Source: Bradyrhizobium prioriisuperbiae (GTDB lineage: Bacteria; Pseudomonadota; Alphaproteobacteria; Rhizobiales; Xanthobacteraceae). From it: DNA of 64,000 bases. The stretch lies in the NCBI RefSeq assembly GCF_032397745.1, contig NZ_CP135921.1, positions 1,798,001-1,862,000 of the forward strand, given 5' to 3'. Positions 27,164 to 44,142 of this stretch are shown here, one piece after another (position 1 is the first letter of the stretch; every line of letters begins with the position of its first letter). Under the pieces are notes generated by a model. That model did not search any database. It had not been told where the DNA came from and was given only the letters and a program-made list of their open reading frames with translations. The translations under genes were made by a program, and so were the position numbers.

Positions 27164-27187
27164 CACGCCCTCCTACCCAAATATAAG

Positions 27188-27299: not shown

Positions 27300-27440
27300 G
27301 ATTTGCTCCACCTCTCGTTCACTGCAGCACCACCACACCACCCCCTCCACCTCTAAAGAGGAGGTGGAGCGGTGGTGCGGTGGTGCAAGTGCTCCACCGC
27401 TCCACGCTGCTCTGCTCCACCTCAAAGTGGTGGAGCAGCA
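27300..27440. repeat. GGTGGAGC hairpin/iteron-like region, possible replication origin
   Basis: Six or so copies of GGTGGAGC or its complement GCTCCACC in 140 bases. One long stem pairs CACCACACCACC...CTCCACCTC (from about 27328) with GAGGAGGTGGAG...GGTGGTG (to about 27387). A second pairs GCTCCACC (27413) with GGTGGAGC (27430). It lies directly downstream of the RepA-like ATPase gene. It may be a terminator, but the repeats also fit iterons or single-strand initiation hairpins. Confidence 0.5.
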
Positions 27441-27442
27441 GG

Positions 27443-28606: not shown

Positions 28607-28914
28607 TCATCGCCCTGCGGGAGCTGCGCCATCATTTCAGCGATCGTGGGCCGACCGCGTCTTCTGCGTGGCTGCTCTGCGGTTGTCGGCTGCTGCGGCA
28701 GCGGCGATCGATGTGCGGCGACGAAGGCGTGCAAATCGGCCACTGCGAATAGTGTTCGCCGCCCAATTTTTGTCTGCACAGGCCCGCGGCCACGATAGCA
28801 AAGATCGCGAAGCGCACCGGGCGTTATGCCCAGCAGCGCCGCAGCGCGGCGATAGTCGGCCAAAAGCGGATTGGTGTCGAGCGCGCCTCCTGGCGCGCGG
28901 GTATGCGTTGGCAT
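28603..28914 (-). CDS. AlpA/excisionase-like helix-turn-helix protein
   Basis: 103 residues with a MerR-like winged helix: YRRAAALLGITPGALRDLCYRGRGPVQTKIGRRTLFAVADLHAFV, a layout common to AlpA regulators and excisionases. A basic C-terminal tail (RRRRGRP) follows. It is the first gene of the replication operon and overlaps the RepA-like gene by four bases. Likely roles are excision control or rep-operon regulation. Confidence 0.75.
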   Translation of the reverse strand: MPTHTRAPGGALDTNPLLADYRRAAALLGITPGALRDLCYRGRGPVQTKIGRRTLFAVADLHAFVAAHRSPLPQQPTTAEQPRRRRGRPTIAEMMAQLPQGDE

Positions 28915-29360
28915 GTGGCAGCCCCATCATCATATCAATGAGAGGCCGCTGCCCGCCCCTAGGCGCGGTGGACTCGGGTTACTTGGTCAACTCAACGACT
29001 CGGGGCCTTGTACGACTCTTACCGGGAGCGCCCCAAGGACGCTCTTGAGAAAAAGGCTCGCCCGGAAAACGAAGAGTGTCAACGCTGACGGTCGCCCACA
29101 CCTGTTGAAACACGTGGAAAGTCGCGCTCAATCGCGCGTGCTCGCTGAACAGCACTTTGTCGTGCCTGGCGAAACCTGATTGCGCGGGTCCAAACACCAT
29201 CGCTAATGATCGCCGGACGTCACAGGACGTATAAGCAGCGATTTTTCGCTGGCACAATTTTGGCACAGTGAGGGGCGACTTTTTGCGATAGCCCGCGACC
29301 GCCAGCGACTATTAAGCTATTGATTTTTATATATTTTAGTTTTAAAGAAGACGTTGTTAC
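28915..29360. other. Right end of the element, no confident gene
   Basis: 446 bases. A minus-strand ORF (28979-29266, GTG start) crosses it but has no family resemblance and overlaps the arm-type repeat, so I do not call it. Contents: the replication-operon promoter region, the arm-type site at 29258-29269, and an AT-rich stretch (about 29310-29350) next to attR. Confidence 0.45.
29258..29269 (+). repeat. Candidate integrase arm-type site, right
   Basis: Second copy of TTTTGGCACAGT, preceded by GGCACAA. See the partner at 19334-19345. Confidence 0.45.
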
Positions 29361-29409
29361 TGCCCTCCGAAGGCAAAGGTCACACGTTCGAATCGTGTCG
29401 GGTGCGCCA
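29361..29409 (+). repeat. attR of the integrative element
   Basis: Perfect copy of the tRNA-Arg 3' end (49 bases). The bases just upstream (GACGTTGTTAC) differ from the tRNA, so the identity ends at 29361. An AT-rich stretch at about 29310-29350 precedes it, as is common at integrase-bound ends. Confidence 0.95.
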
Positions 29410-30012: not shown

Positions 30013-30318
30013 TCAGGCGTTTCCAGCAATGACGTCCCGCCGCGCCTCGGCACCCGGCAGAGGCGTCTGCTTTGTTCTCACGACGGGAAGAGCCAGGGCC
30101 TTTTCTGCGTTGACGTCCAACCACTGATCGTCGTCGAGATCTATGTCCTCGACGATCGCCGAAACGGGACATAGCGGCTTGCAGGCTCCACAGTCGATGC
30201 ACGCGATTGGATCGATGTAAAGCCGTTCGTCGTCGCCGTGGAAGCAGGAGACTGGACACACCGAGACGCAGTCCGTGAAACGGCATCCGGTGCAGTTTTC
30301 AGTTACGACATGCGTCAT
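30013..30318 (-). CDS. 7Fe (FdxA-type) ferredoxin
   Basis: 101 residues from the ATG at 30318, which overlaps the stop of the molybdoenzyme gene (ATGA). Cys pattern: CTGCRFTDCVSVCPV for the first cluster region and CIDCGACKPLCPV for the second, the layout of FdxA-type ferredoxins that hold one 3Fe-4S and one 4Fe-4S cluster. The C-terminal extension of about 30 residues is usual for the group. Translational coupling makes it the likely electron partner of the molybdoenzyme, and the ferredoxin reductase at 38731-40095 is the likely source of electrons. Confidence 0.9.
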   Translation of the reverse strand: MTHVVTENCTGCRFTDCVSVCPVSCFHGDDERLYIDPIACIDCGACKPLCPVSAIVEDIDLDDDQWLDVNAEKALALPVVRTKQTPLPGAEARRDVIAGNA

Positions 30319-32504
30319 CAAGCGTGCTCCAAAGGCGCAGGTTGTCGTGAATTCGCGGCTAGAGCGACGATCGCATCGTTGTCGATCTTCGCGACTTCGA
30401 CGAGGTTGTCGTTGAAGGTTGGAGCGCGACCCATATTCGCGACGCGATCAGAGCTGATCGAGTTCACCGCGCTCTTGGATTTCGAATCCGCGGACCAATG
30501 ACCCAGGAAGCTCGCGACGACGCCCTTCATCGTATCGGCGGACACGACCGCCGATCCCACGAACGCGCCCCGGTCGTTGGACACCTTGACGGTGTCGCCG
30601 TTGACGATCCCGCGGGATTGCGCGTCGTCCGGATGCATGATGAGCACCGGGACGCCCTCTCTCTTCTGCTGCTTGATCTCGTTCGCGTACTGCGAGTTCA
30701 GGAAGCCGTGAGCCTTGGGGCTGATGATGTTAAGCGGATACTTCGATGCGATCTCGGGCGTACTGTGTTGGGATTCGAAGGGTGCATTATAGCTCGGCAG
30801 AGGATCGATATAGCCACCGTCCTGAAAGGCCTCGTAACCCGACCTGAACGGCGGCGGAACGAAATTGCCATTCGCCGCCTCACTGGATTTAAACTCGCAC
30901 TTTCCCGATGGAGTCGGGAAATTGCCTTCCGCATGCGGCGTCCGAACATCTTTGTCGCCCACCGCGGCCTTCATATAGCCGCTTTCCTTCAGCGCCTCGA
31001 ATGTGATGCCCTCCATGAGCGGCGAATTCCAATCGATGAAGTCCCGGATCATCTCCTCATCGGTACGCCGCCATTCCGGCTCGTCGAAGCCCATCGTCTC
31101 CGCAAGAAGACGGAAGAGCTGCGAATTCGGCACCGCCTCACCGGGAGCCTCGATCGCCTTATTGTTGTAGGTCCAGTAGAAGTGTCCCCAAGAGAACATT
31201 AAGTCCGTCTGCTCCGCCTGCATCGTTGAAGGCAGCAAGATGTCGGCGTATCTGGCCGTATCGGTGATGAACAGCTCGCTCACGACGAGGAACAGGTCCT
31301 CGCGCAGCAGACCCTTCTTAATCCGCTCCTGGTCCGGCGCCTGCACGACGGGATTGATGTTGTAGACCATCATGGACTTGATGGGCGGCTCGGACGTTTC
31401 GAGCAACACTTTGCCGAGGTTGTTGAGATTGAAGACGCGCGAGCCTTCCTTGATCCAGTCGGGCCGGCACATGGCATCCCACTTCAGCGCGAAGGCTCCC
31501 ATCGTGATACCGATGTAACCGCCGCCCACGTGCCTCCAGGCCCCCACCAGAGCGGGCAGGCAGAGTATGGCCCGGGCCGCCTGACCACCGTTGCGGCTGC
31601 GTTCGATCGCGACGCCAAGCCTAATGACCGCAGGGGCCTGCGTGGCGTATTCCCGCGAAAGCGTCAGGATGTCCTCTACGGGTATGCCCGTGATCGATGA
31701 GACGCGTTCCACGGGGTATTCGGCCGCCCGGGCGGCGAGTTCGTCGAACCCGGCCGTGTACCGTTCGACGTAGTCGCGATCGTACAAACCCTCGGAAATG
31801 ATGACGTTCATCATGCCCAAGGCGAGCGCGGCATCGGTGCCGGGCTTGATCGGAATATGCCAATCCGCCTGCGCGGCCGTCTTGCTGCGGAGGGGATCGA
31901 TTGAGACGATCTTGGCGCCCCTGCGCTTCGCTTCGGCGATGAAAGGCCATTGATGATTGCCTGTGCTGAGCGTGTTTACGGCCCAGAGGATGAGGTACCG
32001 AGAATGGACTAGGCTCTCTGGATCCACACCCGTCGAACCGCCGATGGTGAGATGGGCTCCCACGTCGCGGCCGACGCCGCAGAAGGTCTTCTCCGCGACG
32101 GTCGAGCCGAGCCTGTTGAAGAAGGCGTCACCGACCGTCAATCCGTTCAAAACGCCCTCCTGCCCGAGATAGCTGCAGGGCATGATCGCCGCGGACCCAA
32201 ATTCGTCGATGATGCGGGTCCAGCGGCTCTTGATCTCGCCGAGTGCCTCCGCCCAGCTGATCCTTTCGAACTCGCCGGAGCCCTTCGGCCCAACCCGCTT
32301 CATCGGATAGATAACGCGATTAGGGTTATAATGGTGCTTGGCGAAGTCGTTCAGCTTGGTGCACAGGCGGCCCTGCGTCACTGGATGCTCGGGGTCTCCC
32401 TTCACATCGATCAAGCGTCCGTTTTCAACAGTATAGATAAAAGCACATGTGTCCGGACAATCCTGCGGGCAAGCACCTTTTACCGTCGTCTTTTCGGAAC
32501 TCAT
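30318..32504 (-). CDS. Cytoplasmic molybdopterin-dependent oxidoreductase (DMSO reductase superfamily)
   Basis: 728 residues. The N-terminal 4Fe-4S motif is CPQDCPDTC with Cys12, Cys16, Cys20 and Cys48. By position, Cys142 in KTFCGVGRDVG is the probable Mo ligand (Cys-type, as in formate dehydrogenase homologues and Nap), but this is a hand alignment. The C-terminal molybdopterin-binding domain is clear (PDDAQSRGIVNGDTVKVSNDRG). No Tat signal, so it acts in the cytoplasm, with the ferredoxin encoded by the overlapping gene. The reaction is unknown: ferredoxin-linked reduction of an imported substrate or formate-like oxidation are both possible. Confidence 0.88.
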   Translation of the reverse strand: MSSEKTTVKGACPQDCPDTCAFIYTVENGRLIDVKGDPEHPVTQGRLCTKLNDFAKHHYNPNRVIYPMKRVGPKGSGEFERISWAEALGEIKSRWTRIIDEFGSAAIMPCSYLGQEGVLNGLTVGDAFFNRLGSTVAEKTFCGVGRDVGAHLTIGGSTGVDPESLVHSRYLILWAVNTLSTGNHQWPFIAEAKRRGAKIVSIDPLRSKTAAQADWHIPIKPGTDAALALGMMNVIISEGLYDRDYVERYTAGFDELAARAAEYPVERVSSITGIPVEDILTLSREYATQAPAVIRLGVAIERSRNGGQAARAILCLPALVGAWRHVGGGYIGITMGAFALKWDAMCRPDWIKEGSRVFNLNNLGKVLLETSEPPIKSMMVYNINPVVQAPDQERIKKGLLREDLFLVVSELFITDTARYADILLPSTMQAEQTDLMFSWGHFYWTYNNKAIEAPGEAVPNSQLFRLLAETMGFDEPEWRRTDEEMIRDFIDWNSPLMEGITFEALKESGYMKAAVGDKDVRTPHAEGNFPTPSGKCEFKSSEAANGNFVPPPFRSGYEAFQDGGYIDPLPSYNAPFESQHSTPEIASKYPLNIISPKAHGFLNSQYANEIKQQKREGVPVLIMHPDDAQSRGIVNGDTVKVSNDRGAFVGSAVVSADTMKGVVASFLGHWSADSKSKSAVNSISSDRVANMGRAPTFNDNLVEVAKIDNDAIVALAANSRQPAPLEHA

Positions 32505-32546
32505 CTTTTCGCTCCATCGATTCGAGAGACTCGGCTTCCTTGTCGG

Positions 32547-32945
32547 TTACGCCGAGTACAGCTTACTCGTGATCTTCCACTTTCCGCCGGCGCGAGCCAA
32601 CGCGAAAACGTCCGTTCCGGTGACTTCCTGAGAGCCGAGCTTCAGGAGAAACGGTACATGCACGCTCGCCACAGGCCCCGTTACGGCGACGTCCGGATCG
32701 GTGTGAAACTCCTCGACGTGGCCATTTGCCTTGTGCAAGCCGTCCACGACGTCGATGAAGTCCGGAAGCGACCAGACCGTCATCTTCTCATCCGCGATCG
32801 AGCAGTGGGATACGTTCGCGGTCTCCGCGAAGGCGTCCAGGAACAGGCCCTTGTCGTTCTTGTAGAGGGCCTGAAGATAGGTCGAGATCGTCTCGAGAAC
32901 GAGCTTCTCGTCGCTCGGCGTGGTCGCGGCTACTGACTGTCGCAT
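32547..32945 (-). CDS. NTF2/SnoaL-like small protein
   Basis: 132 residues from the ATG at 32945 (GAAAGGA upstream). The longer ORF start at 33092 is not conserved in character. The sequence fits the cone-shaped NTF2-like fold: an N-terminal helix pair (LVLETISTYLQALYKNDKGLFLDAF), then ANVSHCSIADE and beta strands ending GGKWKITSKLY. Such proteins are isomerases, hydrolases or binding proteins. It sits between the molybdoenzyme gene and the ABC genes in the same direction and probably acts on a pathway intermediate. Confidence 0.78.
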   Translation of the reverse strand: MRQSVAATTPSDEKLVLETISTYLQALYKNDKGLFLDAFAETANVSHCSIADEKMTVWSLPDFIDVVDGLHKANGHVEEFHTDPDVAVTGPVASVHVPFLLKLGSQEVTGTDVFALARAGGKWKITSKLYSA

Positions 32946-33009
32946 GGTTAGTCCTTTCCGGTTGTCTGAAGTGTCGTAGCTTGCTTGATCAACGTCTGAT
33001 CTCTTGCAG

Positions 33010-34074
33010 TCACTTTGTTCCGAGGCGATCTCCTTCACTGTCGAACAGATGCAGTCGCCTCGCGTCGAATACGACCGACCGCGTGTAATCATCCGGGCTT
33101 TCGAGCTGGCCCGTCACCCTGATCTTGATCAGCTGGTCACCCAACAATGCGTTGACGATCGTGTATCCTCCGAGAGGCTCGATCGAACTCACGCCGATCT
33201 CCTGCCCCGAGCCATTGGTGGCACGGTGAATGTCTTCCGGGCGCACGCCCAGGATTCCCTTCGCCCCGGCCGGCACGTCGCTCCCGGCAGGGACGCCGAC
33301 GACCATCTTGCCGCACTCGAAATGTCGTCCATCGTCGGAGAACCACCCGTGAAACAGATTCATCGGTGGCGAGCCGACGAGGGTCGCGACGGAGATCGTA
33401 TTCGGCCTGTTGTAGACGTCGTCAGGAGCTCCGACCTGCGCCACGCGGCCATCGATGATGACCGCCACACGATCGGCTATGGCCATCACCTCCTCTTCGT
33501 CGTGCGAAACGTAGACGAAGGTCTGGTTCTTGGTTCGCTGAAGGCGCTTGAGTTCGACTCTCATCTCCTCGCGCAGGCGTGCGTCGAGTGCGGCGATCGG
33601 CTCGTCCAGGAGGATCGCCCGGTTGTCAGGCGCCAACGCGCGACCCAGAGCGATGCGCTGCCGCTCGCCGCCCGACATCTGGGCGGGGTTCTTGTGCAGG
33701 ATGTGGCCAACATGGAGAACGTCCGACACCGCATCGAGCCGTCGGCCGATCTCCTTCTTGGATAGTCCCCGTTCGGAGAGTGCGAACGTGATGTTCTCCC
33801 GGCCGCTCATGTGTGGAAAGAGCGCAAGGTTCTGGAAGACCATTGAGATCTGCCGCTCCGCGACTTCCATTTCCCCTGCGTCCACGCCGCCGACCAGGAC
33901 CTGCCCGCTATCCGGCTTCACGAGTCCTAGAATTAGTTTCAGGATGCTGGTCTTGCCGGCGGATGGCGGGCCCAGGATTCCGAACAGTTCTCCCCGCTGC
34001 ACGGCCAGATCAATCGGCCCCAGCGTGAAGTTCGGATAGTTCTTGACGACTCCGCGAATGGTGATGGCGTTCAC
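33010..34074 (-). CDS. ABC transporter ATP-binding protein (MalK/UgpC type)
   Basis: 354 residues: nucleotide-binding domain with Walker A variant GPPSAGKTS, Q-loop VFQNLALFP, signature MSGGERQR, Walker B ILLDEP, H-loop VSHDEEE, and a C-terminal TOBE/OB regulatory domain (GVRPEDIH). It overlaps the second ATPase gene by four bases. Together they form a heterodimer, as in the rhizobial two-ATPase glycerol importer type (GlpS/GlpT). In such a pair each site combines Walker A of one subunit with the signature of the other, and this subunit has the intact signature. Confidence 0.92.
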   Translation of the reverse strand: MNAITIRGVVKNYPNFTLGPIDLAVQRGELFGILGPPSAGKTSILKLILGLVKPDSGQVLVGGVDAGEMEVAERQISMVFQNLALFPHMSGRENITFALSERGLSKKEIGRRLDAVSDVLHVGHILHKNPAQMSGGERQRIALGRALAPDNRAILLDEPIAALDARLREEMRVELKRLQRTKNQTFVYVSHDEEEVMAIADRVAVIIDGRVAQVGAPDDVYNRPNTISVATLVGSPPMNLFHGWFSDDGRHFECGKMVVGVPAGSDVPAGAKGILGVRPEDIHRATNGSGQEIGVSSIEPLGGYTIVNALLGDQLIKIRVTGQLESPDDYTRSVVFDARRLHLFDSEGDRLGTK

Positions 34075-35180
34075 TGCAGCCTCCCATCCAGGCGGTCGCC
34101 CGTAGCCAGATCGAACGCCAGACTCTTGTCCGCACTCAGGTAGAACGCAATCTCTTCGCCGATGCTCAACCGGGCCTGTTCGTCGACGGACAGGAACCGC
34201 GACTCTCCGACCTGCAGATAGGCGAGCCGCGTCGGCCCGACACGCTCGATCACCTCGACGTGCCCCCTCATCTCGATGTCGTCGGCAGAGCGGCGCTCTC
34301 CGACATAGATGTGCTGCGGACGAATGCCGAGCGAACCTCCCCGAGCCGAGCGTGCGCGCGCGAAATCGGCAGCCGCGCGGCCAGACAATGCGATCTCGGC
34401 ACCGCCATCAAGCAGAAGCTTCAGCTGCCCGGCATGCCCTTCGAGCTTCCCGTCGAGCAAATTCATGCGCGGACTGCCTACGAAGTTGGCCACGAAGCGA
34501 TTGTGCGGGTCGTTGTAGACGTCGAGCGGTGCCCCGTATTGCATCAAGCGGCCCTTGTCGATGATCGCGATCTTGTCGGCCAGGCTCATCGCTTCGATCT
34601 GATCATGCGTTACGTAGATCATGGTTTGACCGAATTCGCGTTGGAGAACCTTCAACTCCGCACGCATGTAGGCACGGAAGCTCGCGTCGAGATTCGACAG
34701 CGGCTCATCAAGCAGAAAAACGCGCGGTTCGACGATCGCGGAGCGGCCGATCGCCAATTTCTGCATCTCGTTGACAGACAGGCTGCCTGCGGATTGATGC
34801 AAGCGGTGGACGAGCCCCATGCGCTCGGCCATCCCGCGCACCTTGCGTTCGATCTCATGTTTCGCGACGCGCCGCACCTCTAGGCCGTAGGAAAGGTTCT
34901 TGTAGACGGTCAGGTGGGTGAAGACCGCGTAGTTCTGAAAGACGAATCCGATGTTGCGATCCTGCTGTCGCATTCGCGACAGATCGCTTCCATTGAACGA
35001 GATCGATCCTTCGCTGGGATCCTCCAATCCCGCTATCATGTTCATCGTCGTCGTCTTGCCGCAGCCGGACGGACCCAGAAGAGCCACGAACTCGCCCTGA
35101 GCGATATCGAGGTTCAGTCCGCTTACGGCGATAAAGTCGTCGAAGCGTTTGGTCACGTTTGTTATCTGAACGGACGTCAT
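34071..35180 (-). CDS. ABC transporter ATP-binding protein with a degenerate signature motif
   Basis: 369 residues with an orthodox Walker A GPSGCGKTT, Q-loop VFQNYAVFT, Walker B VFLLDEPLSNLDA and H-loop VTHDQIE, plus a TOBE domain. The ABC signature, normally LSGGQ, reads LSVNEMQ. The heterodimer with the preceding subunit would thus have one canonical and one degenerate catalytic site. Lies five bases from the permease gene. The MalK-like C-terminal domain agrees with a CUT1-type importer. Confidence 0.92.
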   Translation of the reverse strand: MTSVQITNVTKRFDDFIAVSGLNLDIAQGEFVALLGPSGCGKTTTMNMIAGLEDPSEGSISFNGSDLSRMRQQDRNIGFVFQNYAVFTHLTVYKNLSYGLEVRRVAKHEIERKVRGMAERMGLVHRLHQSAGSLSVNEMQKLAIGRSAIVEPRVFLLDEPLSNLDASFRAYMRAELKVLQREFGQTMIYVTHDQIEAMSLADKIAIIDKGRLMQYGAPLDVYNDPHNRFVANFVGSPRMNLLDGKLEGHAGQLKLLLDGGAEIALSGRAAADFARARSARGGSLGIRPQHIYVGERRSADDIEMRGHVEVIERVGPTRLAYLQVGESRFLSVDEQARLSIGEEIAFYLSADKSLAFDLATGDRLDGRLQ

Positions 35181-35184
35181 CGGG

Positions 35185-36129
35185 TCACCCTCTCCTCTTT
35201 GCCGCGTGAGAGATGCCTCGTGCGGCGAGGAGGCTCAGCGAGAACAGGATCGTCAGGCCGATCGCGGCGACGTACGACCAGTCCAGGTCAGCAAAAGTCT
35301 TCTTGTAGAGGTAGAGCGATATCGTCTCGGTCTCGACGCCCGGACCGCCCTTGGTCATGACGAGGATGATATCGAAAATCTTGAAGCACTCGACCGCCCG
35401 GAGCACGAGAGCGATGCCGATGACGGGCTTCATTCGCGGCAGGATGATCTTGATGAAGTTCTGCCAGTTGGAAGCGCCCAGCAGGCGCCCGGCCGTCAGC
35501 TGATCGGAGGGAACTCCGAGCATTCCTGCCAGCAGGATCAGGAACATCAGCGGCGTCCACTGCCACGTGTCCGCGATGATTACCGACAGCATGGCGCGAT
35601 GCACGTCGGTCAGCCAGGAGAAGCTGATCGGTAATCCGAACGTGTCATTCACCGGACCCGTGCCCTGGAAGAGCAGGAAGAAGATCAGACCGACGACCGC
35701 CGGCACGATCATCATCGGCGTCAGGATGATGGAGTAGAAGATCTTGCGGCCGACGAACTGCTCCATGAACAGATAGGCTAGACCGAGGCCCAGCAGGAAC
35801 TGCGCAGGAACGGCGATCGCCATCAAGAGGACCGTTCTGCCCAATGCCGCCCACATCGCCCCGTCGGTGAAGAGACGCAGGTAGTTGTCGCCGCTATTGA
35901 AGCTTTCATAGGCGCGGTACCAACGGACGCCGTCGAGCGGGGTCCACCAGGTGACGCTGAGATAGAACTGCATCGCCAACGGAAAGACGACGATAAACAC
36001 CAAGAGCAGGACGGCGGGAGTGACAAACCAGAAGCCGAGCTTCCGGCCGTCGTGGGCGACGCTCGACCAATAGCCGCGGCCAGGCTGCTTCATCTCGGAG
36101 CGAACGGGCTCGGCTGCCGTTTCGGTCAT
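35185..36129 (-). CDS. ABC transporter permease (MalF type)
   Basis: 314 residues from the ATG at 36129, which overlaps the stop of the second permease gene. The ORF can be extended to 36573 only antisense-like. Six membrane segments, with the cytoplasmic EAA loop (GRLLGASNWQNFIKIILPRMKP) that contacts the ATPases. Central membrane component of the importer. Confidence 0.9.
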   Translation of the reverse strand: MTETAAEPVRSEMKQPGRGYWSSVAHDGRKLGFWFVTPAVLLLVFIVVFPLAMQFYLSVTWWTPLDGVRWYRAYESFNSGDNYLRLFTDGAMWAALGRTVLLMAIAVPAQFLLGLGLAYLFMEQFVGRKIFYSIILTPMMIVPAVVGLIFFLLFQGTGPVNDTFGLPISFSWLTDVHRAMLSVIIADTWQWTPLMFLILLAGMLGVPSDQLTAGRLLGASNWQNFIKIILPRMKPVIGIALVLRAVECFKIFDIILVMTKGGPGVETETISLYLYKKTFADLDWSYVAAIGLTILFSLSLLAARGISHAAKRRG

Positions 36130-36983
36130 TGCTTGAGCGCTCCGAAGGTGAGACCTCGCACGAGGTGTTTCTGGATGAGCAATCCGAAGATCACCGGAGG
36201 AATCGCCGCGATCATTCCCAGCGCCGCCTTCATTCCGTACATCTGTCCGCCCATCGGAGAGGTCAGAGTGGACATGTAGATCGGCAAGGTGATCCAGTTC
36301 TTCTGGGTTAGCAGCAACGCGAGCAGATAGTCCGACCAGTTCAGGATGAAGACGAACAACGCGCAGGTGGCGAGCCCCGGCTTTACGATCGGCAGGGTGA
36401 TGCGGTAGAAGACCCGCCAGTACGAACAGCCCGAGACGCGCGCCGCGTCCTCGATCTCGACCGGAACCTCGTCGAAGAACGTCTTCATGAGCCAGAACGC
36501 GAACGGCAGTGTCACGATGCCGTAGATCAGCGAGAGGCCCCACCACGTATCGACGGCTCCGATGAACGCCCACATGACCATGACCGGAATCATGACCGCG
36601 AGCGGCGGAAACAGCCGCAATTGAAGCACCTGCAACGGCAACGCCGACATGATTCCGAACCGGACGACCGCGTAGGACGACAACGTCCCCGCCACGACCG
36701 CCAAAGCCGTGCCGCAGATGGAGGTGATCAGGCTGGCGGTTAACGGCCCGAGAATGCTTCGATCGAGGCTGACGACCAACCCTTCAGCGTGGCCGAAGAT
36801 GACGAACTCGAAGTTCTGCAGCGTCGGATTTCGTGGAAACCACGTCATGCCGCTTCCGGTCGTCCATTCGGCGAACGGCTTGAACGCCATGGTGACCATC
36901 CATAGCAACGGATAGATCACCACCACGCATGCGAGGAGGACCAGGGCATATCTGATTACTTGGGCTCGTATCGGCGTCCGCAC
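36126..36983 (-). CDS. ABC transporter permease (MalG type)
   Basis: 285 residues from a GTG start (MRTPIRAQVIRY). Six membrane segments and the EAA loop (EDAARVSGCSYWRVFYRITLPIVKPGL). It pairs with the MalF-type permease, overlapping it by four bases. The binding-protein gene lies 60 bases upstream. Confidence 0.9.
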   Translation of the reverse strand: MRTPIRAQVIRYALVLLACVVVIYPLLWMVTMAFKPFAEWTTGSGMTWFPRNPTLQNFEFVIFGHAEGLVVSLDRSILGPLTASLITSICGTALAVVAGTLSSYAVVRFGIMSALPLQVLQLRLFPPLAVMIPVMVMWAFIGAVDTWWGLSLIYGIVTLPFAFWLMKTFFDEVPVEIEDAARVSGCSYWRVFYRITLPIVKPGLATCALFVFILNWSDYLLALLLTQKNWITLPIYMSTLTSPMGGQMYGMKAALGMIAAIPPVIFGLLIQKHLVRGLTFGALKQ

Positions 36984-37043
36984 GTTGCTGCTCCTATCCG
37001 CCGGACCCGCATCGCTGCGAGTCCGGCCCCCGTTTCATTCAAG

Positions 37044-38666
37044 TCAGATGCTGTCCGAGCCCATCGGCCAGGATGCGCGACTGGCCTTGATCGCCTCGAC
37101 GATGCCTTTGCCGCGCTGACGGCGGATGATCTGCTCCCACTTGCCTTGCGCGGCATCCATCGCCTGACGCGGGGTCTTCTGCTTCGTCAGCGCCGCCTGG
37201 AGTTCTTCGTCCAGCGCGTTATCGAGCGCGGTCTGACCGCCGAAGTTCAGAGACGGCACCGAGCGCGCGATGGAGTAGGGAATCGTCTTCATCGCGTAGG
37301 GCTGATAGTTTGAAGCGACCAGTGGCTCGTTGAAGTTCGCCTTTTGGAAGGGATCGAAGAACCCGGTCGGGCTCACCATCAAGAACGTGAAGGTCCGGGT
37401 CGAACTGAGCCACTGGAGGAAGAGGTAGGCGGCTTCGGCGTTCTTCGATTTCGGCGATATCCATGCCGTTACGCTGTAGTACATGACCGCGCGGCGGTTG
37501 ATCTTGTCGCCGAATTTGCGCCCGACCGGATCATGAGCGCCCATTAACCCCGTTGCCTTCGACTTCGGAGTACCGTCCGGCTTTTTGCCATCGCCGTACT
37601 TGGCGATCGCAGTGTACGTGCAGATCTGAGGGACCTGCAGATTCCAGAGCGAGTTCCAGCCTTCCAAGAAGGTAAAGTTCAGCGCGTCGGGGGGGGACCA
37701 TTCGAACGAGCGTACGTGCTCTTCCGCGCATTTCACTCCCAGCTCGGAATTGAGGTTCGGTTGTCCCTCGTCGTTGAAGAAGTAGTGATTGGGGAAGTCC
37801 ATCGACGCGAAGCGCGTGTAGAAGGTAGGAAGGCCCCAGAAGCGGCTCATCAGGCAGCCGTTGCCGTACATCTTGCCGTTGCCGAAGTCCTTGCCGGTGA
37901 AGAACTTCGAGATAGCATCGACCTCTTCCCATGTGTCAGGCACGGCGAGCGGGCGATCGACCTCCTTCAGGAAGGCCTCCTTCACCTCGGGCTTCTCGTA
38001 GAGGTTCTTCAGGTAATACCAGACGAGCGTGTCGCCATCGAGGCCGACCATGTAGTTCTTGTTGTTGTAGGTGTAGAGCTGCTTTCCGAACGCCTCCGTC
38101 GTGACGCCGCGCTCCGGATCGTTCCAGTCCGGCTTGTACTTGTTGACGAATTCGGACACGTCGGTCGCGCCACCCGACGAGACGAGGTCGCCGGTGGAAT
38201 TCCAGGGACCGGTGTAGATGTCAAAGGCGCCATCGCCGGTCGTGACGTCCTGCATCACCTTCTTGAAGATGTCGTCGGGCGTCGCGCCGATCATCTCGAC
38301 CTCGATGCCGGTCTCGCGCATCCACACGTCTAGCGGCGACATGGCACCGTCGCGGAACGGTTTGCGGATCTGGTCGATCGATCCGTCGAGTAACAGGACC
38401 GTCAGCTTCTTCGGAGCCTTGCCTGCCGCCTTGAGAGCCTTGATGCCTTCGATGGCCCGGCCTTCCGACATGCTGCTGTTGTACTGAAGACGTTCGGCAC
38501 CTTCGAAGCCCAACGGGCCGCCCGTCATGCCAGGAGCATATTCGGCCGCTCGAAGTGGCGAGGAAACGAGGGAGCCACCGCCGCCTCCCAATGCCGCCGC
38601 GGCGACCAATCCGGTCGAGGTCTTTAGGAAATCCCGACGTGACGAATGTGAATTATCGTTTGACAT
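37044..38666 (-). CDS. ABC transporter extracellular solute-binding protein, Tat-exported
   Basis: 540 residues. The twin-arginine signal (SSRRDFLKTSTGLVAAAALG) predicts Tat export in folded form. The mature protein is large, as in rhizobial glycerol-type binding proteins (about 560), with a family-1 solute-binding fold (GAFDIYTGPWNSTGDLV, TWEEVDAISKFF, SVTAWISPKSKNAEAAYLF). It should capture a small polar substrate for import by the permeases. No sequence feature fixes the substrate. Upstream lies the ferredoxin reductase gene. Confidence 0.9.
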   Translation of the reverse strand: MSNDNSHSSRRDFLKTSTGLVAAAALGGGGGSLVSSPLRAAEYAPGMTGGPLGFEGAERLQYNSSMSEGRAIEGIKALKAAGKAPKKLTVLLLDGSIDQIRKPFRDGAMSPLDVWMRETGIEVEMIGATPDDIFKKVMQDVTTGDGAFDIYTGPWNSTGDLVSSGGATDVSEFVNKYKPDWNDPERGVTTEAFGKQLYTYNNKNYMVGLDGDTLVWYYLKNLYEKPEVKEAFLKEVDRPLAVPDTWEEVDAISKFFTGKDFGNGKMYGNGCLMSRFWGLPTFYTRFASMDFPNHYFFNDEGQPNLNSELGVKCAEEHVRSFEWSPPDALNFTFLEGWNSLWNLQVPQICTYTAIAKYGDGKKPDGTPKSKATGLMGAHDPVGRKFGDKINRRAVMYYSVTAWISPKSKNAEAAYLFLQWLSSTRTFTFLMVSPTGFFDPFQKANFNEPLVASNYQPYAMKTIPYSIARSVPSLNFGGQTALDNALDEELQAALTKQKTPRQAMDAAQGKWEQIIRRQRGKGIVEAIKASRASWPMGSDSI

Positions 38667-38730
38667 GCTTCTGTTCCCCCTCTGTGGCCACTCTGCCGTT
38701 GCTCGATGTCGCGAAACTCCAGTTCTGATG

Positions 38731-40095
38731 TCAGGCCAGCGACTGCTCCGATGCCTTCAGCATCGCAGCGACCCTTGTCAGTTTCTCGCGCGGCTTGGCT
38801 TTGGCCGCCCCATTTGCCCGTTCCAGCGCGTCGATCCTGCGCCAGCCTTGGAAGTCGATGAGTTTGAGTGACCGCCCGCGAAGGGACGCGAAGAACAACT
38901 CTCGCGAGATGTCCCGCACATCGCATTCCGTCGCCTTCAGATCGGCCAGTAGGGAATCGATCGTGTCGATGGCGCACGCCCGGTTGGTCCCGATGATTCC
39001 GCTTGGTCCACGCTTGATCCACCCGGCGACGTACAGTCTCGGAACCGGGTTGCCATCGCCGTCAATGACCCGGCCTTCTTGCTGAAGGACCGTCGCCGAG
39101 CACTCATCGAATGGGACGCCTGAAATCGACGTACCGCGATATCCTACGCTGCGCACGACGAGGTGCGCCGGGATCAATATCCGCTCGCCGGTCGCCGACG
39201 TTGTCTGGCTGCCCGCCCGTCCTGAGAGCCGCAGTGTTTCGAATTCGACCCACTCGACCGTCCCCTTCCCCTGGATTGACGAAGGTGCGAGGAGAAAGCG
39301 GAAATGTATGCGCCTCCTCTTCGCTGGCGTTTCCTGCCGCTGCGCGAATCCGCGAAGAATTTCCAGGTTCTTCGATGCGGAAGGCGAGCCTGCGGTCTCG
39401 GCGGTCGACGCTTCGTCGAGCTGCAGTTCTGCGGGATCCACGAACGGCTGGGCTTCTTCGAGGTCGCCGAACTCGCGCAACTCCTTGCCCGTGAACTTCG
39501 CCTGCGCGGGTCCGCGTCGGCCTATCACGTAGATGTCGGTTATTTTGCTTGCCGCGAGTGCTTCCAACGCATGTTCGCAGATGTCGCTGCGTCGCAGCTC
39601 GTCGACGCTCTTGGCGAGGACCCGGCATACGTCCAACGCGACGTTGCCGTTTCCGATCACGATCGCGGACGGATGCGAGAAATCGAAGCTCTTGTCCCGG
39701 AAGTCCGGATGGCCGTTGTACCAACCAACGAGCTCGGTGGCGGAGACGCTTCCCGACAGTTCCTCGCCGAGGATTCCGAGCGGGCGGTCGCTCATCGCGC
39801 CGGTGGCCAGGACGACGCCATGATAGGCGGCCTGGAGTTGCGATACCCGGACGTCTCGTCCGACGTCCAGGTTGCCGACAAAGGAAAAATTCGGATGGTC
39901 CGCGATCTGTTCGAAAACGGCGGTGACGGACTTCAGCTTCTGGTGGTCAGGCGCCACTCCGTGACGGACCAGGCCGAACGGCACCGGCAGCCTGTCGAAC
40001 ATGTCGACCTGAACGGGAATGCCGGAGCGCAACAGGGCATCCGCAGCATAGAACCCGGCGGGTCCACTCCCAACGATGGCAATCTTGAAAACCAT
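38731..40095 (-). CDS. Adrenodoxin-type ferredoxin-NADP reductase (FprA-like)
   Basis: 454 residues. FAD-binding GSGPAGFYAADALL at the N-terminus, FGLVRHGVAPDH (a marker of adrenodoxin-reductase/FprA-type proteins), NADP-binding GNGNVALDV, and the C-terminal GWIKRGPSGIIGTNR substrate loop. It passes electrons from NAD(P)H to a ferredoxin, here probably the 7Fe ferredoxin of the cluster. It is the first gene of the long minus-strand transcription unit. Its promoter contains the proposed MocR operator. Confidence 0.93.
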   Translation of the reverse strand: MVFKIAIVGSGPAGFYAADALLRSGIPVQVDMFDRLPVPFGLVRHGVAPDHQKLKSVTAVFEQIADHPNFSFVGNLDVGRDVRVSQLQAAYHGVVLATGAMSDRPLGILGEELSGSVSATELVGWYNGHPDFRDKSFDFSHPSAIVIGNGNVALDVCRVLAKSVDELRRSDICEHALEALAASKITDIYVIGRRGPAQAKFTGKELREFGDLEEAQPFVDPAELQLDEASTAETAGSPSASKNLEILRGFAQRQETPAKRRRIHFRFLLAPSSIQGKGTVEWVEFETLRLSGRAGSQTTSATGERILIPAHLVVRSVGYRGTSISGVPFDECSATVLQQEGRVIDGDGNPVPRLYVAGWIKRGPSGIIGTNRACAIDTIDSLLADLKATECDVRDISRELFFASLRGRSLKLIDFQGWRRIDALERANGAAKAKPREKLTRVAAMLKASEQSLA

Positions 40096-40140
40096 GAATC
40101 AAATGCCCAACGCTCGCTAAACATCGCGCCGAGCACCAAA

Positions 40141-40203
40141 TTGGACCCTCCCGTCGCCTAGGTTTAGAAGAGGCCCAAGCCTTGGTTCTGAAAAGTGCCA
40201 AAA
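40141..40203. promoter_or_regulatory. Candidate MocR operator before the ferredoxin-reductase operon
   Basis: TTGGTTCTGAAAAGTGCCAAA at 40182-40202 repeats with two changes the sequence at 44101-44121 before the aldehyde dehydrogenase gene. A half-site TTGGACC lies at 40141-40147. The arms TTGGTTC and GTGCCAA form an imperfect palindrome. The rest of the 333-base spacer 40096-40428 holds no gene, and no convincing -10/-35 is visible. Confidence 0.6.
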
Positions 40204-40428
40204 GGACTGAAATCAATGAATCCAAGGAGACAATTGTTTGTGCAGATGCAGCGACAAACGCTATAAAAATGGTCACAAACTGCCTATGTACGGAACAATT
40301 TGCTGCATCGAAGCAAGGACGGCGGGATCTTGCCTGAAGGCCGGTAAATGCCTTTCGTCTCATCTAAAGGGGCTGAACTTCGCCCCACACTTGTCGAATA
40401 GCGAGCGCATTGCTTAGCAACGCCACGT

Positions 40429-41952
40429 CTAACGACTTCCGTTTTCTAGCGCGGACTCGTGCGACCTAGGAGCGGGTGCTTTCAAACTCATCTCGCGCAT
40501 GATGCCGTTTAGCTTTTCGACAGCTTCCAGGATCTTGTTCTCCGGTAGCGAAGCATAGCCGAACATCAAAGTGTCGTCGGGCGCTGTACCATCGAAGTCG
40601 AAGGCACCTCCGCTGGACAGGGCATACACGCCGACACCGGCGGCCCGGGCCTTCGTCTGAATGGCGAGCGCGCTCGGCATGCCCTTCGGCAGACGCCAGA
40701 CGAGATGCAGACCGCTATCCTGACCCGTGATGACCGGCTCGCGAAACTTCTTGCGTAGCGCGGATATGAGCGCGTCGCGACGGCTCTTGTAGAGCTGACG
40801 CAGCTTGCGCACATGCCGGTCGAAATGCCCGTCGCTGACGAACTCGGCGAGCGCGCATTGCTCGAGCCACGACTGCCCGTTGCTCATCTTGGCCTTGAGC
40901 AGGCGGGCCTCCTCGGAGAATATCTGCGGCACCACCGCGAAGCCGAGCCGCAGACCTGCGCCGACCGACTTGGAGAAGGTGCCGATGTAGAAGACGCGTC
41001 GGCCCCTATCCAATCCAGATAGCGCCGTAAGCGGAGGTCCGTCGTACCTGAAATCGCTGTCGTAGTCGTCCTCCATGATGTAGCTATCCGTATCGCCCGC
41101 CCACCTGAGCAGCGCGAGGCGGCGGCTCAAAGTCATGACGACGCCCGTAGGATACTGGTGCGAAGGCGTGACGTAGATCAGACTGCGTGGCTTGTTTGGT
41201 AGACAGTCCGTCCTGATGCCCTCCGAATCGACTGGCACGGGCTCGATCGGGAGGTTCTCGCTTTGAAAGATCATCGAAGCGCCCGCGTAGCATGGATTTT
41301 CGATGCACAGGTTTTCCGTGTGGCCGCGCAGAAGATTCATGACGAGATTGAGCGCATCCTGACCGCCTGCAGTCACGATGATCTGGTCGGTCGTCACGTG
41401 CATGCCGCGGGTTCTTCCGAGGTGATCGGCGATGGCCCTCCGCAATTGCGGTAGTCCGGCCGGATCACAGTAGTCCGCGAGATACTGGGATTCCCCGGAA
41501 AGAAGTTTCGTAACGATACGGCGCCAGACACGTAGAGGAAAGCCGCTCGCTGCCTGCCGACCGACCCAAAAATCGATGGTTGGACGATCTTCTCCGCCAC
41601 CAGGAGAACCCGCAAAGCAGAGGAGGGGTTCGCCGGCCTCCGGGGGTACCGGACCGTTGGTCCGCAGCGGTGGACGCGGGCTGCTGACGAGCAGAAGGTC
41701 GTCCGGAGGGATCGCCGTCACGAACAATCCAGACGTACCTCGGGGTTCTACGTACCCTTCCGCTGCCAGACGATCGAAGGCGATGATGACGGTGTTCCGG
41801 GACACCTGGTACCGCTCGGCCAGCAACCTGGTTGGTGGCAGCGACATTCCGGCCTGCAGGCGACCGTCCAGGATCAGCAATCGAACTTGGTCGAAGATCT
41901 GCGCCTGAAGCGATTTGTCCGACCTTGCATCGAGCGTGAGCGCCAATTCCAC
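40429..41952 (-). CDS. MocR/PdxR-type GntR-aminotransferase regulator
   Basis: 507 residues. A GntR winged helix-turn-helix (RLLAERYQVSRNTVIIAFDRLAAEGY, about 43-68) is joined to a fold-type I aminotransferase domain with the PLP-binding region GTFSKSVGAGLRLGF. MocR proteins use PLP to sense amino or carbonyl compounds and either activate or repress neighbouring pathways (GabR, TauR, PdxR). It lies between the ferredoxin-reductase operon and the aldehyde dehydrogenase gene, both of which carry a matching candidate operator. Confidence 0.93.
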   Translation of the reverse strand: MELALTLDARSDKSLQAQIFDQVRLLILDGRLQAGMSLPPTRLLAERYQVSRNTVIIAFDRLAAEGYVEPRGTSGLFVTAIPPDDLLLVSSPRPPLRTNGPVPPEAGEPLLCFAGSPGGGEDRPTIDFWVGRQAASGFPLRVWRRIVTKLLSGESQYLADYCDPAGLPQLRRAIADHLGRTRGMHVTTDQIIVTAGGQDALNLVMNLLRGHTENLCIENPCYAGASMIFQSENLPIEPVPVDSEGIRTDCLPNKPRSLIYVTPSHQYPTGVVMTLSRRLALLRWAGDTDSYIMEDDYDSDFRYDGPPLTALSGLDRGRRVFYIGTFSKSVGAGLRLGFAVVPQIFSEEARLLKAKMSNGQSWLEQCALAEFVSDGHFDRHVRKLRQLYKSRRDALISALRKKFREPVITGQDSGLHLVWRLPKGMPSALAIQTKARAAGVGVYALSSGGAFDFDGTAPDDTLMFGYASLPENKILEAVEKLNGIMREMSLKAPAPRSHESALENGSR

Positions 41953-42441
41953 AGGTCAACCCTTTCGGCTTTCCAGATGACAGACGCAACCTTTTCGAAC
42001 GTACCAAGGATTCAGCGTGGCATCTGCCTCTCGTCGCTATGAAAGCAAGATTTCCGCGTCTTTGTCGAGTGGCCGGTTTCTGTGATTGATGATCCGAAAC
42101 AACGCATCGAACCGCAGTATGGTCGATGATCGGCCGCGACCTCCGAGAGCCCATTCAGCGCGCCCGCGGATCGCCAATGCAAATTCTCTCGGAACGAGGA
42201 CATAGGGTTTGCAGGGGTCCGACGGCGACGAAGCCGGCTCACGTAATCCTCCTTACCTGCTGTGTCATTCGCGAAACATGCGTCGATCGGCCTATTGCCG
42301 ACACGGCGCAAGGACCTCGATCCGACGACGGCCTGTCTCGTGCACCAGACCCGGTGAGCAATCTCCGGGTCTGGCGCCATTCCCGATTCGCGTCGCTAAC
42401 GGGCGACGCCAAATAAGTATTGGAGCGGTTCGCGACGGGCA
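41953..42441. other. Intergenic region upstream of the MocR gene
   Basis: 489 bases between the MocR start and the aldehyde dehydrogenase stop. ORFs cross it but look non-coding. It should contain the MocR promoter. A lone ACCAAGGATTC at about 42003 resembles a half-site of the cluster operator, but not convincingly. Confidence 0.45.
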
Positions 42442-43932
42442 CTAGAGCGGGCGTACGATCGACTGCTTGCGATAGTAGTCTTCGAGCGTATCGGGACCAA
42501 GCACGCCGCCACCGCAGCCACTCAGATTACAGCCACCATACGACACTCCGTGCGGGAAGAGATTGTGTGCGTTTATCCACGAATTTCCGGCGACCAGACG
42601 CTCGGCAACCCGCGTCGCTCGGTCGAGGTCGCTCGTCCACACGCTGTTCGCGAGACCGTACGGACTGCTGTTGACCAACGTTACCGCTTCTTCTTCGTCT
42701 TTGAACTTCATCACGTAGGCGACGGGGCCGAAGACCTCTTCGCGTGCGCAGATGTTGTCGGATGCTCCGCCGAGAAGCGCCGGCTTGACGTAGAAGCCTT
42801 CCTCGTAGCCGGAGACATCGGCGACACCGCCGGGAAGATAGGCTTCCGCACCTTCCTTCGCCGAACGCTCCACGTAACCCAGCACGCGGCGACGCTGCTT
42901 GTCGCTGACGAGGGGGCCGATCTGCGACGACTCATCCCCGCCGTAGCCGACCTTCATTCCCTTCATGGTCGACGCAGCCTTGGCGATGAACGCGTCGGCG
43001 ACCTTCTCGTGCACGATCCAACGGGTCGCTGTGCAGCAGACCTGCCCAGCGTTCAAAGTGACCGCGGCCGCCAGAGCTTCTGCGGCGCTTTCGACCGCGA
43101 TATCGTCGAAAAGGATTGCGGCTCCCTTTCCGCCGAGTTCGAGCTTGGCGGGAACGAGATTACGGGCACAGGCCTCGGCCACAAGCTTGCCGATCTCAGG
43201 TGAGCCGGTGAAGGACATCCGGTTGATACCACGATGGGACGAGAGAGCGGCGCCCGTGGTCGAACCCAATCCCGTGATCACGTTCACAACACCTTTCGGA
43301 ATACCTGCCTCTTCCACGAGCCTCGCGAATATGAGCGCGGACAGAGGAGTGTCTTCCGCCGGCTTGATGACGATCGTGTTGCCTGCGGCCATCGCCGGCG
43401 CAACGCCCCACCCGAGCAACAGGAAAGGGAAGTTCCAGGGAAAGATGAAGCCGCACACACCATGCGGCTGCCTGACCGACCAGGCATCGTTTCCGGCCAC
43501 CGGAAACGGCTCGCGATGTCGCGTGTTCACGCTGAGATCAGCGTAGTATCGGAAGGTCTGCGCCGCATGCGGAATGTCGAATGCGGTCGCCTGCACACGG
43601 GGCTTGCCGACGTCCCGCGATTCGATCTCAGCCAGCAACGGAGTGTGCTTGTCGATCAGGTCCGCGAGTCTATGAAGAAGGACAGCCCGATCCTTCGGCT
43701 GCATGCTGCGCCAGGCCGTCTTGTTGAACGCTTGACGTGCCGCACCCACTGCGGCGTCGACGTCCGCCGCCTCTGCGGCCGGGACCCGCGCAAGCAGCTT
43801 TCCGGTGCCGGGATCGAGCGTCTCGAAGGTCTTCCCGCTTGATGCGGCGACCTGCTCGCCGCCAATGTGCATTTTGATTGGCTGCGAAAGGAATTCACCG
43901 ATTGCGAAAGCTTTCGAATCGATCTTATTCAT
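42442..43932 (-). CDS. NAD(P)-dependent aldehyde dehydrogenase
   Basis: 496 residues, a complete ALDH. Coenzyme-binding PWNFPFLL region, general-base Glu in LELGGKGAAI, catalytic Cys in NAGQVCCT, and an EEVFGPV C-terminal motif. Related to betaine-aldehyde/gamma-aminobutyraldehyde enzymes by overall pattern. It oxidises an aldehyde derived from the cluster substrate to the acid. Single gene with the MocR-like operator about 170 bases upstream. The start ATG at 43932 (MNKIDSKAF) is ordinary. Confidence 0.94.
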   Translation of the reverse strand: MNKIDSKAFAIGEFLSQPIKMHIGGEQVAASSGKTFETLDPGTGKLLARVPAAEAADVDAAVGAARQAFNKTAWRSMQPKDRAVLLHRLADLIDKHTPLLAEIESRDVGKPRVQATAFDIPHAAQTFRYYADLSVNTRHREPFPVAGNDAWSVRQPHGVCGFIFPWNFPFLLLGWGVAPAMAAGNTIVIKPAEDTPLSALIFARLVEEAGIPKGVVNVITGLGSTTGAALSSHRGINRMSFTGSPEIGKLVAEACARNLVPAKLELGGKGAAILFDDIAVESAAEALAAAVTLNAGQVCCTATRWIVHEKVADAFIAKAASTMKGMKVGYGGDESSQIGPLVSDKQRRRVLGYVERSAKEGAEAYLPGGVADVSGYEEGFYVKPALLGGASDNICAREEVFGPVAYVMKFKDEEEAVTLVNSSPYGLANSVWTSDLDRATRVAERLVAGNSWINAHNLFPHGVSYGGCNLSGCGGGVLGPDTLEDYYRKQSIVRPL

Positions 43933-44100: not shown

Positions 44101-44142
44101 TTGGTTCTGAAAAGGACCAAACTCGTGGCCCTAGATGGTGCC
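44101..44142. promoter_or_regulatory. Candidate MocR operator before the aldehyde dehydrogenase gene
   Basis: TTGGTTCTGAAAAGGACCAAA at 44101-44121 is a near-palindrome (TTGGTTC/GGACCAA) and nearly identical to 40182-40202. A further half-site GGTGCCAA lies at about 44135-44142. Distance to the ALDH start is about 170 bases. The surrounding gene-free stretch 43933-44273 shows no other structure. Confidence 0.6.

What the first reader, a model, noticed from the sequence alone, without database searches (positions are those of the whole stretch)
30013..43932. Uncharacterised ferredoxin-molybdoenzyme-ABC importer cluster under a MocR regulator
Seen: overlapping genes for a 7Fe ferredoxin and a signal-less Mo-bisPGD-type oxidoreductase, an NTF2-like protein, two ABC ATPases, two permeases, a Tat-exported binding protein, an adrenodoxin-type ferredoxin reductase, a MocR regulator and an aldehyde dehydrogenase, all on one strand. 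Known: FprA-type reductases feed ferredoxins, which usually supply P450 or Rieske oxygenases. No oxygenase is present, and the only candidate acceptor is the cytoplasmic molybdoenzyme. Inference: an NAD(P)H-ferredoxin-molybdoenzyme chain acts on an imported small substrate whose aldehyde product is oxidised by the ALDH. I know of no described pathway with this exact set.
Basis: partly seen in the sequence, partly recalled or inferred. Interest (0 to 1): 0.8.

Follow-up and report, generated by a model that had tools for sequence, protein, structure and literature searches.

The report
Molybdenum-enzyme import and conversion gene cluster
A movable stretch of a soil bacterium's chromosome carries a small gene set that probably imports a sugar-like compound and converts it with a molybdenum enzyme fed by an unusual electron supply, and the same set turns up in unrelated bacteria.

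Summary
In detail: every gene named is there, on one strand, with small corrections to gene starts. The set recurs in Bradyrhizobium lablabi, Kaistia soli, Cognatishimia maritima and Jannaschia sp. M317. Kaistia has no aldehyde dehydrogenase (ALDH) in the fetched DNA and Jannaschia has a different one.

(1) A 20-bp palindrome precedes both the reductase operon and the ALDH gene. It is conserved between genera and exact only at those two places in the 9.08-Mb genome, so MocR probably runs a private regulon including the ALDH.
(2) Molybdoenzyme, 7Fe ferredoxin and FprA-type reductase form a wider cassette, found in 31 of 49 homologous loci, 28 of them without this importer, under AraC, TetR or MocR regulators.
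(3) In 49 inspected loci the importer occurs exactly where the molybdoenzyme carries a distinct loop after its metal-binding cysteine (4 of 4; 0 of 45 others). Formate-dehydrogenase and acetylene-hydratase catalytic residues are missing.
(4) The set lies on a 54.8-kb integrative element in a tRNA-Arg gene.

The NADPH-ferredoxin-molybdoenzyme chain is well supported by gene association. Substrate and direction of electron flow are unknown. My paper searches found no described pathway with this set.

The parts
30013..30318 (-). 7Fe (FdxA/Azotobacter FdI-type) ferredoxin, about 101 aa
   Evidence: NCBIfam FdxA_Protbact 108 bits (below its cut-off of 135); aligns cysteine for cysteine with Azotobacter ferredoxin I; start and TGATG overlap
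30318..32504 (-). cytoplasmic Mo-bisPGD (DMSO-reductase family) oxidoreductase, 728 aa; Cys142 as likely Mo ligand, followed by G-V-G-R-D
   Evidence: Pfam PF04879, PF00384, PF01568; invariant C12, C16, C20, C48 and C142 in 67 rows; model pLDDT 86.6, best folds FDH/Nap/acetylene hydratase
32547..32945 (-). NTF2-like (Lumazine_bd_2) protein, about 132 aa
   Evidence: Pfam PF12893 1.6e-13 on the longer ORF; likely start; present in Kaistia (49%) and B. lablabi (67%), replaced by a cupin gene upstream of the reductase in Jannaschia and Cognatishimia
33010..34074 (-). ABC ATPase 1 (CUT1/UgpC-MalK type)
   Evidence: Pfam ABC_tran + OB_MalK; conserved 71-81%
34071..35180 (-). ABC ATPase 2 (CUT1/UgpC-MalK type)
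   Evidence: Pfam ABC_tran + OB_MalK + TOBE_2
35185..36129 (-). ABC permease A
   Evidence: Pfam BPD_transp_1; start corrected
36126..36983 (-). ABC permease B
   Evidence: Pfam BPD_transp_1; 79-93% in the three related clusters
37044..38666 (-). Tat-exported solute-binding protein, 540 aa, sugar/polyol (CUT1) class
38731..40095 (-). FprA/adrenodoxin-reductase-type NADPH:ferredoxin reductase
   Evidence: phmmer to M. tuberculosis FprA 382 bits over residues 3-447, GRRGP...FT motif kept
40182..40201 (-). palindromic MocR operator (predicted) before the reductase operon: TTGGCACTTTTCAGAACCAA
40429..41952 (-). MocR/PdxR-type regulator with PLP-lysine motif (FSKSVGAGLR)
   Evidence: Pfam GntR + Aminotran_1_2; NCBIfam PdxR 422 bits against cut-off 320; motif
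42442..43932 (-). NAD(P)-dependent aldehyde dehydrogenase
   Evidence: Pfam Aldedh 5e-151; nearest NCBIfam phenylacetaldehyde/aminobutyraldehyde/betaine-aldehyde DH, all below cut-off; 85% in B. lablabi, 69% in Cognatishimia
44101..44120 (-). palindromic MocR operator (predicted) before the ALDH: TTGGTCCTTTTCAGAACCAA
   Evidence: exact copy before the ALDH of B. lablabi
29361..29409 (+). 49-nt repeat of the tRNA-Arg 3' end: left boundary of the 54.8-kb element that carries the cluster and right boundary of a 10.15-kb element (19209-29409)

Best explanation
A MocR-controlled import-and-conversion unit carried by an integrative element. A Tat-exported binding protein and a two-ATPase CUT1-type ABC importer bring in a small sugar- or polyol-like compound, probably one bearing an amine. 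In the cytoplasm a Mo-bisPGD enzyme of the DMSO-reductase family carries out one redox step on it. NADPH passes electrons through the FprA-type reductase to the 7Fe ferredoxin, which is made together with the molybdoenzyme and hands them on. My best guess is a reductive step (for instance removing an oxygen from an N-O or S-O group). The resulting aldehyde, or one formed from the product, is oxidised by the ALDH. MocR binds a 20-bp palindrome before the reductase operon and before the ALDH gene and switches both on when an amine effector reacts with its PLP. Shown by sequence: the parts, their conservation, the shared palindrome and the active-site differences. Inferred: the partnership of the three redox proteins (from association), the substrate class, the direction and the aldehyde product.
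For: Set conserved in four other lineages, including Rhodobacterales. Molybdoenzyme, ferredoxin and reductase recur together in 31 of 49 homologous loci under three regulator types, sometimes with their own molybdenum-cofactor gene moaA (7 of 49 loci, one of these, Kaistia, an importer locus). A second, only 28%-identical molybdoenzyme is found with the same ferredoxin/reductase pair and an ALDH in Rhizobium sp. CB3090 and Caballeronia sp. SBC1. Operator: exact before the reductase operon and the ALDH in the window and in B. lablabi, 1 and 3 mismatches at the ALDH/cupin-reductase intergenic region of Cognatishimia, 3 in Kaistia; in 1.29 Mb of other fetched loci, hits with up to 3 mismatches fell only in MocR-bearing loci, against 1 hit in five shuffles. 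MocR relatives with E up to 1e-145 lie beside a molybdoenzyme homologue in 7 of 7 genomes, the window's included. Binding-protein fold is of the sugar/polyol class. NADPH-site Arg pair and 7Fe cysteine spacing.
Against: No substrate, binding or kinetic datum exists. 18 of 49 loci have a molybdoenzyme homologue without ferredoxin and reductase found nearby (two of these, L045 and L138, are cut by a record or contig end), so the enzyme family does not always need this pair. The ALDH is missing from the fetched Kaistia DNA and in Jannaschia is only 33% identical. The operator was not found at 4 mismatches or fewer in Jannaschia, nor between MocR and the molybdoenzyme of G170 and G252 (5 mismatches in G252). 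Operator discovery and scan used the same two window sites, so exactness there is by construction; the independent support is the conservation elsewhere. Direction of electron flow cannot be read from sequence.
Confidence: 0.45

Rival explanations
1. Same unit, opposite direction: the molybdoenzyme is a dehydrogenase or hydroxylase that oxidises the imported compound, reduces the 7Fe ferredoxin, and the FprA-type enzyme recovers the electrons as NADPH.
For: The setting looks catabolic (importer plus ALDH). Best structural neighbours include formate dehydrogenases. Homologues sit in methylotroph lineages by name.
Against: The formate-dehydrogenase His next to the ligand is Gly143 and the Arg motif has no counterpart, so the classic low-potential oxidation is not supported. 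FprA-type enzymes are known to run from NADPH to ferredoxin (established knowledge, not tested here).
Confidence: 0.3
2. The molybdoenzyme is a non-redox enzyme like acetylene hydratase, and the reductase/ferredoxin pair only keeps it in its reduced, active state; hydration gives the aldehyde that the ALDH oxidises.
For: Best sequence match among solved structures is acetylene hydratase, 215 bits. A hydratase giving an aldehyde would explain the ALDH.
Against: The catalytic Asp13 of acetylene hydratase (recalled) aligns with Pro17. The similarity is spread over the whole superfamily, with many structures at similar Z.
Confidence: 0.1
3. Two unrelated functions side by side: a sugar/polyol importer with ALDH under MocR, and a general ferredoxin-fed molybdoenzyme, collected on a mobile element.
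For: The redox cassette occurs without this importer in 28 of 31 loci, and relatives of the importer occur without the cassette. The region is a mobile element.
Against: Importer and molybdoenzyme genes lie between the reductase and the ferredoxin in one compact run with overlaps, in all importer loci seen in full; importer presence matches the active-site subtype in 4 of 4 against 0 of 45; the operator ties the ALDH to the run.
Confidence: 0.1

Closest known systems
Ferredoxin-dependent assimilatory nitrate reductase (NarB/NasC class)
   Same: Cytoplasmic Mo-bisPGD enzyme with a cysteine ligand fed by ferredoxin (recalled)
   Different: Scores far below the NasC and NasA models (197 of 1100 bits, 114 of 1000); here the donor is a 7Fe ferredoxin with its own FprA-type reductase, and there is a sugar-type importer
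Acetylene hydratase (Pelobacter acetylenicus, 2e7z)
   Same: Best match among solved sequences, same size and fold
   Different: Catalytic Asp position is Pro17; loop after the metal-binding Cys differs
Formate dehydrogenases (FdhF, HDCR, M. extorquens FDH1)
   Different: Catalytic His and Arg motif absent; TIGR01591 247 bits against cut-off 666
FprA with 7Fe ferredoxin of mycobacteria
   Same: Reductase and ferredoxin are close relatives of FprA and FdxA
   Different: Known partners are mainly P450s or general metabolism (recalled); here they flank a molybdoenzyme
Rhizopine mocABRC/mocDEF system and MocR
   Same: MocR-type regulator, importer, ferredoxin and ferredoxin reductase in a rhizobial catabolic set (recalled)
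   Different: No Rieske ferredoxin or oxygenase; MocR model not reached (360 of 650 bits); binding protein of another class
Two-ATPase polyol importer GlpSTPQV of Rhizobium leguminosarum
   Same: Two different ATPases, two permeases and a long binding protein (recalled, not tested)
   Different: Glycerol system has no molybdoenzyme

Membership tests
DMSO-reductase (Mo-bisPGD) superfamily | 4Fe-4S, molybdopterin and dinucleotide-binding domains | tested here: met
   PF04879, PF00384 and PF01568 all above cut-off; fold matches across the family
DMSO-reductase (Mo-bisPGD) superfamily | bound molybdenum cofactor and redox activity | not testable with these tools
   Needs purified protein
Formate dehydrogenase | His next to the Cys/Sec ligand and the Arg motif near residue 333 (E. 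coli FdhF numbering, recalled) | tested here: not met
   Alignment with HDCR FdhF: Cys142 matches Cys, His is Gly143, and the RGQNN stretch falls in a gap
Acetylene hydratase | catalytic Asp13 next to Cys12 (recalled) | tested here: not met
   Position is Pro17
DmsA/YnfE sulfoxide reductase subunit | curated model cut-off; export signal | tested here: not met
   277.9 of 777.7 bits; no signal peptide visible
FprA/adrenodoxin reductase | full-length similarity and the Arg pair of the NADPH site | tested here: met
   382 bits to FprA, GRRGP kept
7Fe FdxA ferredoxin | cysteine spacing of Azotobacter ferredoxin I | tested here: met
   Alignment without gaps through the cysteine region; curated FdxA models themselves are not reached (108 of 135 and 63 of 125 bits)
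MocR/PdxR regulators | GntR DNA-binding domain fused to an aminotransferase-like domain with PLP lysine | tested here: met
   Pfam, PdxR model above cut-off, FSKS motif; the PdxR function in vitamin B6 synthesis is not supported by the neighbourhood
CUT1 sugar importer | binding-protein class and MalK/UgpC-type ATPases | tested here: met
   ligand not tested; UgpC model not reached (320 and 345 of 432 bits)

The most novel reading that the evidence does not exclude
An undescribed aerobic pathway in which a ferredoxin-fed Mo-bisPGD enzyme takes the place usually held by a P450 or Rieske oxygenase: the first attack on an imported nitrogen-bearing polyol or sugar analogue is made by a molybdoenzyme subtype with a charged Arg-Asp/Glu pair beside the metal ligand, a chemistry not seen in any characterised member. 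The wider cassette (molybdoenzyme, 7Fe ferredoxin, FprA-type reductase, at times with its own cofactor gene) would be a general plug-in redox module that bacteria retune to new substrates by changing this loop and the regulator.
Probability: 0.35. Interest if true: 0.8.

Novelty: new variant of a known kind. Interest (0 to 1): 0.58.

Why it matters
Cytoplasmic DMSO-reductase-family enzymes in aerobic bacteria are common and mostly without known substrate or electron donor. This cluster supplies both leads at once: a defined donor chain, and a binding protein and a regulator whose ligands can be screened without knowing the reaction. The match between loop type, regulator type and importer gives a route to assign functions across the whole family.

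Tried and rejected
Canavanine/hydroxyguanidine route: a methionine gamma-lyase gene lies at 48115-49314 and canavanine gamma-lyase belongs to that enzyme class, but the gene is not a conserved neighbour of the cluster and the paper passages I saw (PMC10018355; passages only) mention no molybdoenzyme. Dropped.

Homarine and acetylene-hydratase routes: paper searches gave no matching cluster; the acetylene hydratase residue test failed.

Formate oxidation (FDH4 idea): residues missing; the paper listing was not read further.

Paper searches: 10 used. Only PMC10018355 was opened (passages); all others were seen as listings. Searches returned no paper.

Results against a tidy picture: by equal longest-contig length in the protein lists, nine molybdoenzyme/binding-protein pairs probably share a contig. 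Two of these molybdoenzymes (P0061, P0070) lack the Arg-Asp/Glu loop, so the importer may not be strictly tied to that loop. These contigs could not be fetched. The structure search of the whole models says little about ligands; titles naming ligands for 5iai and 4rya were cut off in the output, so I do not quote them. The two-ATPase importer of R. leguminosarum was not compared by sequence; a 24%-identical plasmid hit was a different sugar importer. Sampling: the 49 loci are top hits, not a random sample, several come from one genome, and absence means absence within the fetched flanks; L045 and L138 end at a record or contig end before the ferredoxin.
Full report
What is there. One search corrects three starts and shows tight packing: the ferredoxin and molybdoenzyme share one base, the two ATPases overlap by four, and so do the permeases. 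Gaps of 333 and 489 bp flank the MocR gene, so the reductase-to-ferredoxin run, MocR and the ALDH are probably three transcription units.

Where it sits. A 10.15-kb element with an integrase, relaxase/primase and mobilisation genes lies between a tRNA-Arg gene and a 49-nt copy of its 3' end (19209-29409). A 35-base core of that repeat occurs three times in the genome, at window-equivalent positions 19223, 29375 and 84180. A second tyrosine integrase (82632-84095 in window-equivalent coordinates) adjoins the third copy. The cluster therefore opens a 54.8-kb integrative element placed in tandem with the first. TrbI- and TrbG-like genes lie inside it. The neighbouring genes are of other kinds, so the transfer set looks incomplete. 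B. lablabi holds the cluster without this repeat in the 57 kb fetched.

Conservation. A genome scan returned B. lablabi (84% for the molybdoenzyme), Kaistia soli (79%) and Cognatishimia maritima (73%) with importer, reductase, ferredoxin and MocR; a plasmid of Jannaschia sp. M317 has the same run up to the end of the record. The ALDH is shared by B. lablabi (85%) and Cognatishimia (69%); Jannaschia has a different ALDH (33%) and Kaistia none in the fetched DNA. The type is rare. In the window's family, 20 of 315 genomes had a molybdoenzyme match at E up to 1e-200, but only the window and B. lablabi had one at 84% or more, the next best being 61%. In the order, 40 of 297 genomes had a match at that limit, but besides the window only Kaistia exceeded 60%.

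The core cassette. Forty-nine loci with a molybdoenzyme homologue of at least 50% identity were inspected, the window excluded. Thirty-one have ferredoxin and reductase nearby; 28 of these lack this importer. Regulators found with the 31: AraC type 15, MocR type 9, TetR type 4. Seven of the 49 have a moaA gene nearby. Eighteen of 49 lack the ferredoxin/reductase pair, two of them because the record or contig ends. The loci are best hits, not a random sample, and some share a genome. A far relative of the molybdoenzyme (28% identity) is found with the same kind of ferredoxin, reductase and an ALDH in Rhizobium sp. CB3090 and Caballeronia sp. SBC1, so this donor pair has been joined to a molybdoenzyme and an ALDH at least twice.

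Regulation. The repeat search flagged near-identical 20-bp palindromes before the reductase operon and before the ALDH. The pattern TTGGNNCTTTTCAGAACCAA has two exact matches in 9.08 Mb, both here, and four more at three mismatches elsewhere; in the window 0.01 matches are expected by chance. Since the pattern came from these two sites, the test that counts is conservation: B. lablabi has exact copies before the same two genes, Cognatishimia one copy with 1 mismatch and one with 3 between ALDH and the cupin-reductase operon, Kaistia one with 3, and genome G111 one with 3 between MocR and the molybdoenzyme gene. In 103 loci (1.29 Mb) outside the window's genome, matches with up to 3 mismatches fell only in those genomes, against 1 match in five shuffles of the whole set. 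Jannaschia, G170 and G252 did not show it at 4 mismatches or fewer at the expected place. MocR relatives at E up to 1e-145 were found in 7 of 297 order genomes, all 7 beside a molybdoenzyme homologue.

Active site. Cys142 is invariant in 67 aligned homologues and matches the metal ligand of the formate dehydrogenase of the hydrogen-dependent CO2 reductase. After it, 17 of 67 rows read C-x-x-G-R-[DE], and these form one side of a branch with full support. Of 120 listed relatives, 23 have it and 97 do not. In the 49 loci it occurs in 4, exactly the four with the importer. Other groups carry their own versions: C-D-S-x-[SA]-C with AraC regulators, C-G-E-G-S-C where the MocR genes of G111, G170, G252, G033 and G075 stand. 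Against a strict link, equal contig lengths suggest that two molybdoenzymes without the loop share a contig with a relative of the binding protein.

How it most likely works. NADPH, FprA-type reductase, 7Fe ferredoxin, molybdoenzyme: the parts are right for each step and the association is repeated, but no electron transfer has been measured. I lean to a reductive step because the donor side is complete and FprA-type enzymes normally run that way, at modest confidence; the oxidative reading is the main rival. The unit as such (importer, molybdoenzyme chain, MocR, ALDH serving one task) I hold at about 0.85; the full statement with direction at 0.45.

Verdict. The set is a conserved, mobile, privately regulated unit built from a common redox cassette and an importer, with a distinct active-site subtype. 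Each part belongs to a known kind; the combination and the subtype were not found described in the papers I could search.

Noticed in passing
window 19209-29409 and G000:C1:1882180 (window-equivalent 84180): Two integrative elements in tandem at a tRNA-Arg gene: 10.15 kb with relaxase/primase and MobC-like genes, and 54.8 kb carrying the cluster, with a second integrase beside the third repeat copy.
   Followed up: partly
window 47507-49314: Methionine gamma-lyase (TIGR01328 above cut-off) with a divergent Lrp/AsnC-type regulator; not a conserved neighbour of the cluster.
   Followed up: partly
L091:8062-14731 and L092:7651-15928: A different molybdoenzyme (28% identity) with the same type of ferredoxin and reductase, an ALDH and a LysR regulator in Rhizobium sp. 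CB3090 (plus moaA) and Caballeronia sp. SBC1: a parallel assembly.
   Followed up: partly
L139-L147, L047, L048, L050, L059-L061: A compact AraC / molybdoenzyme / ferredoxin / reductase operon, at times with moaA or a glp/moeA-type gene, common in Nitrobacteraceae and on Agrobacterium and Thioclava plasmids; no function known to me.
   Followed up: partly
L051:8329-17774 (Streptomyces sp. NBC_01216 plasmid): A 40%-identical molybdoenzyme among genes for a 2OG-Fe dioxygenase, diaminopimelate epimerase, aminotransferase, ornithine cyclodeaminase and threonine/serine dehydratase: looks like a pathway for an unusual amino acid.
   Followed up: no
L046:11878-14148 (Bradyrhizobium sp. CB82 plasmid): A molybdoenzyme homologue split into two reading frames and not annotated, without its partner genes: probably a decayed copy.
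   Followed up: no
window-equivalent 74014-79177 (L124:12014-17177): DUF4143 ATPase and DEAD/DEAH helicase genes inside the 54.8-kb element; possibly a defence or element-maintenance set.
   Followed up: no
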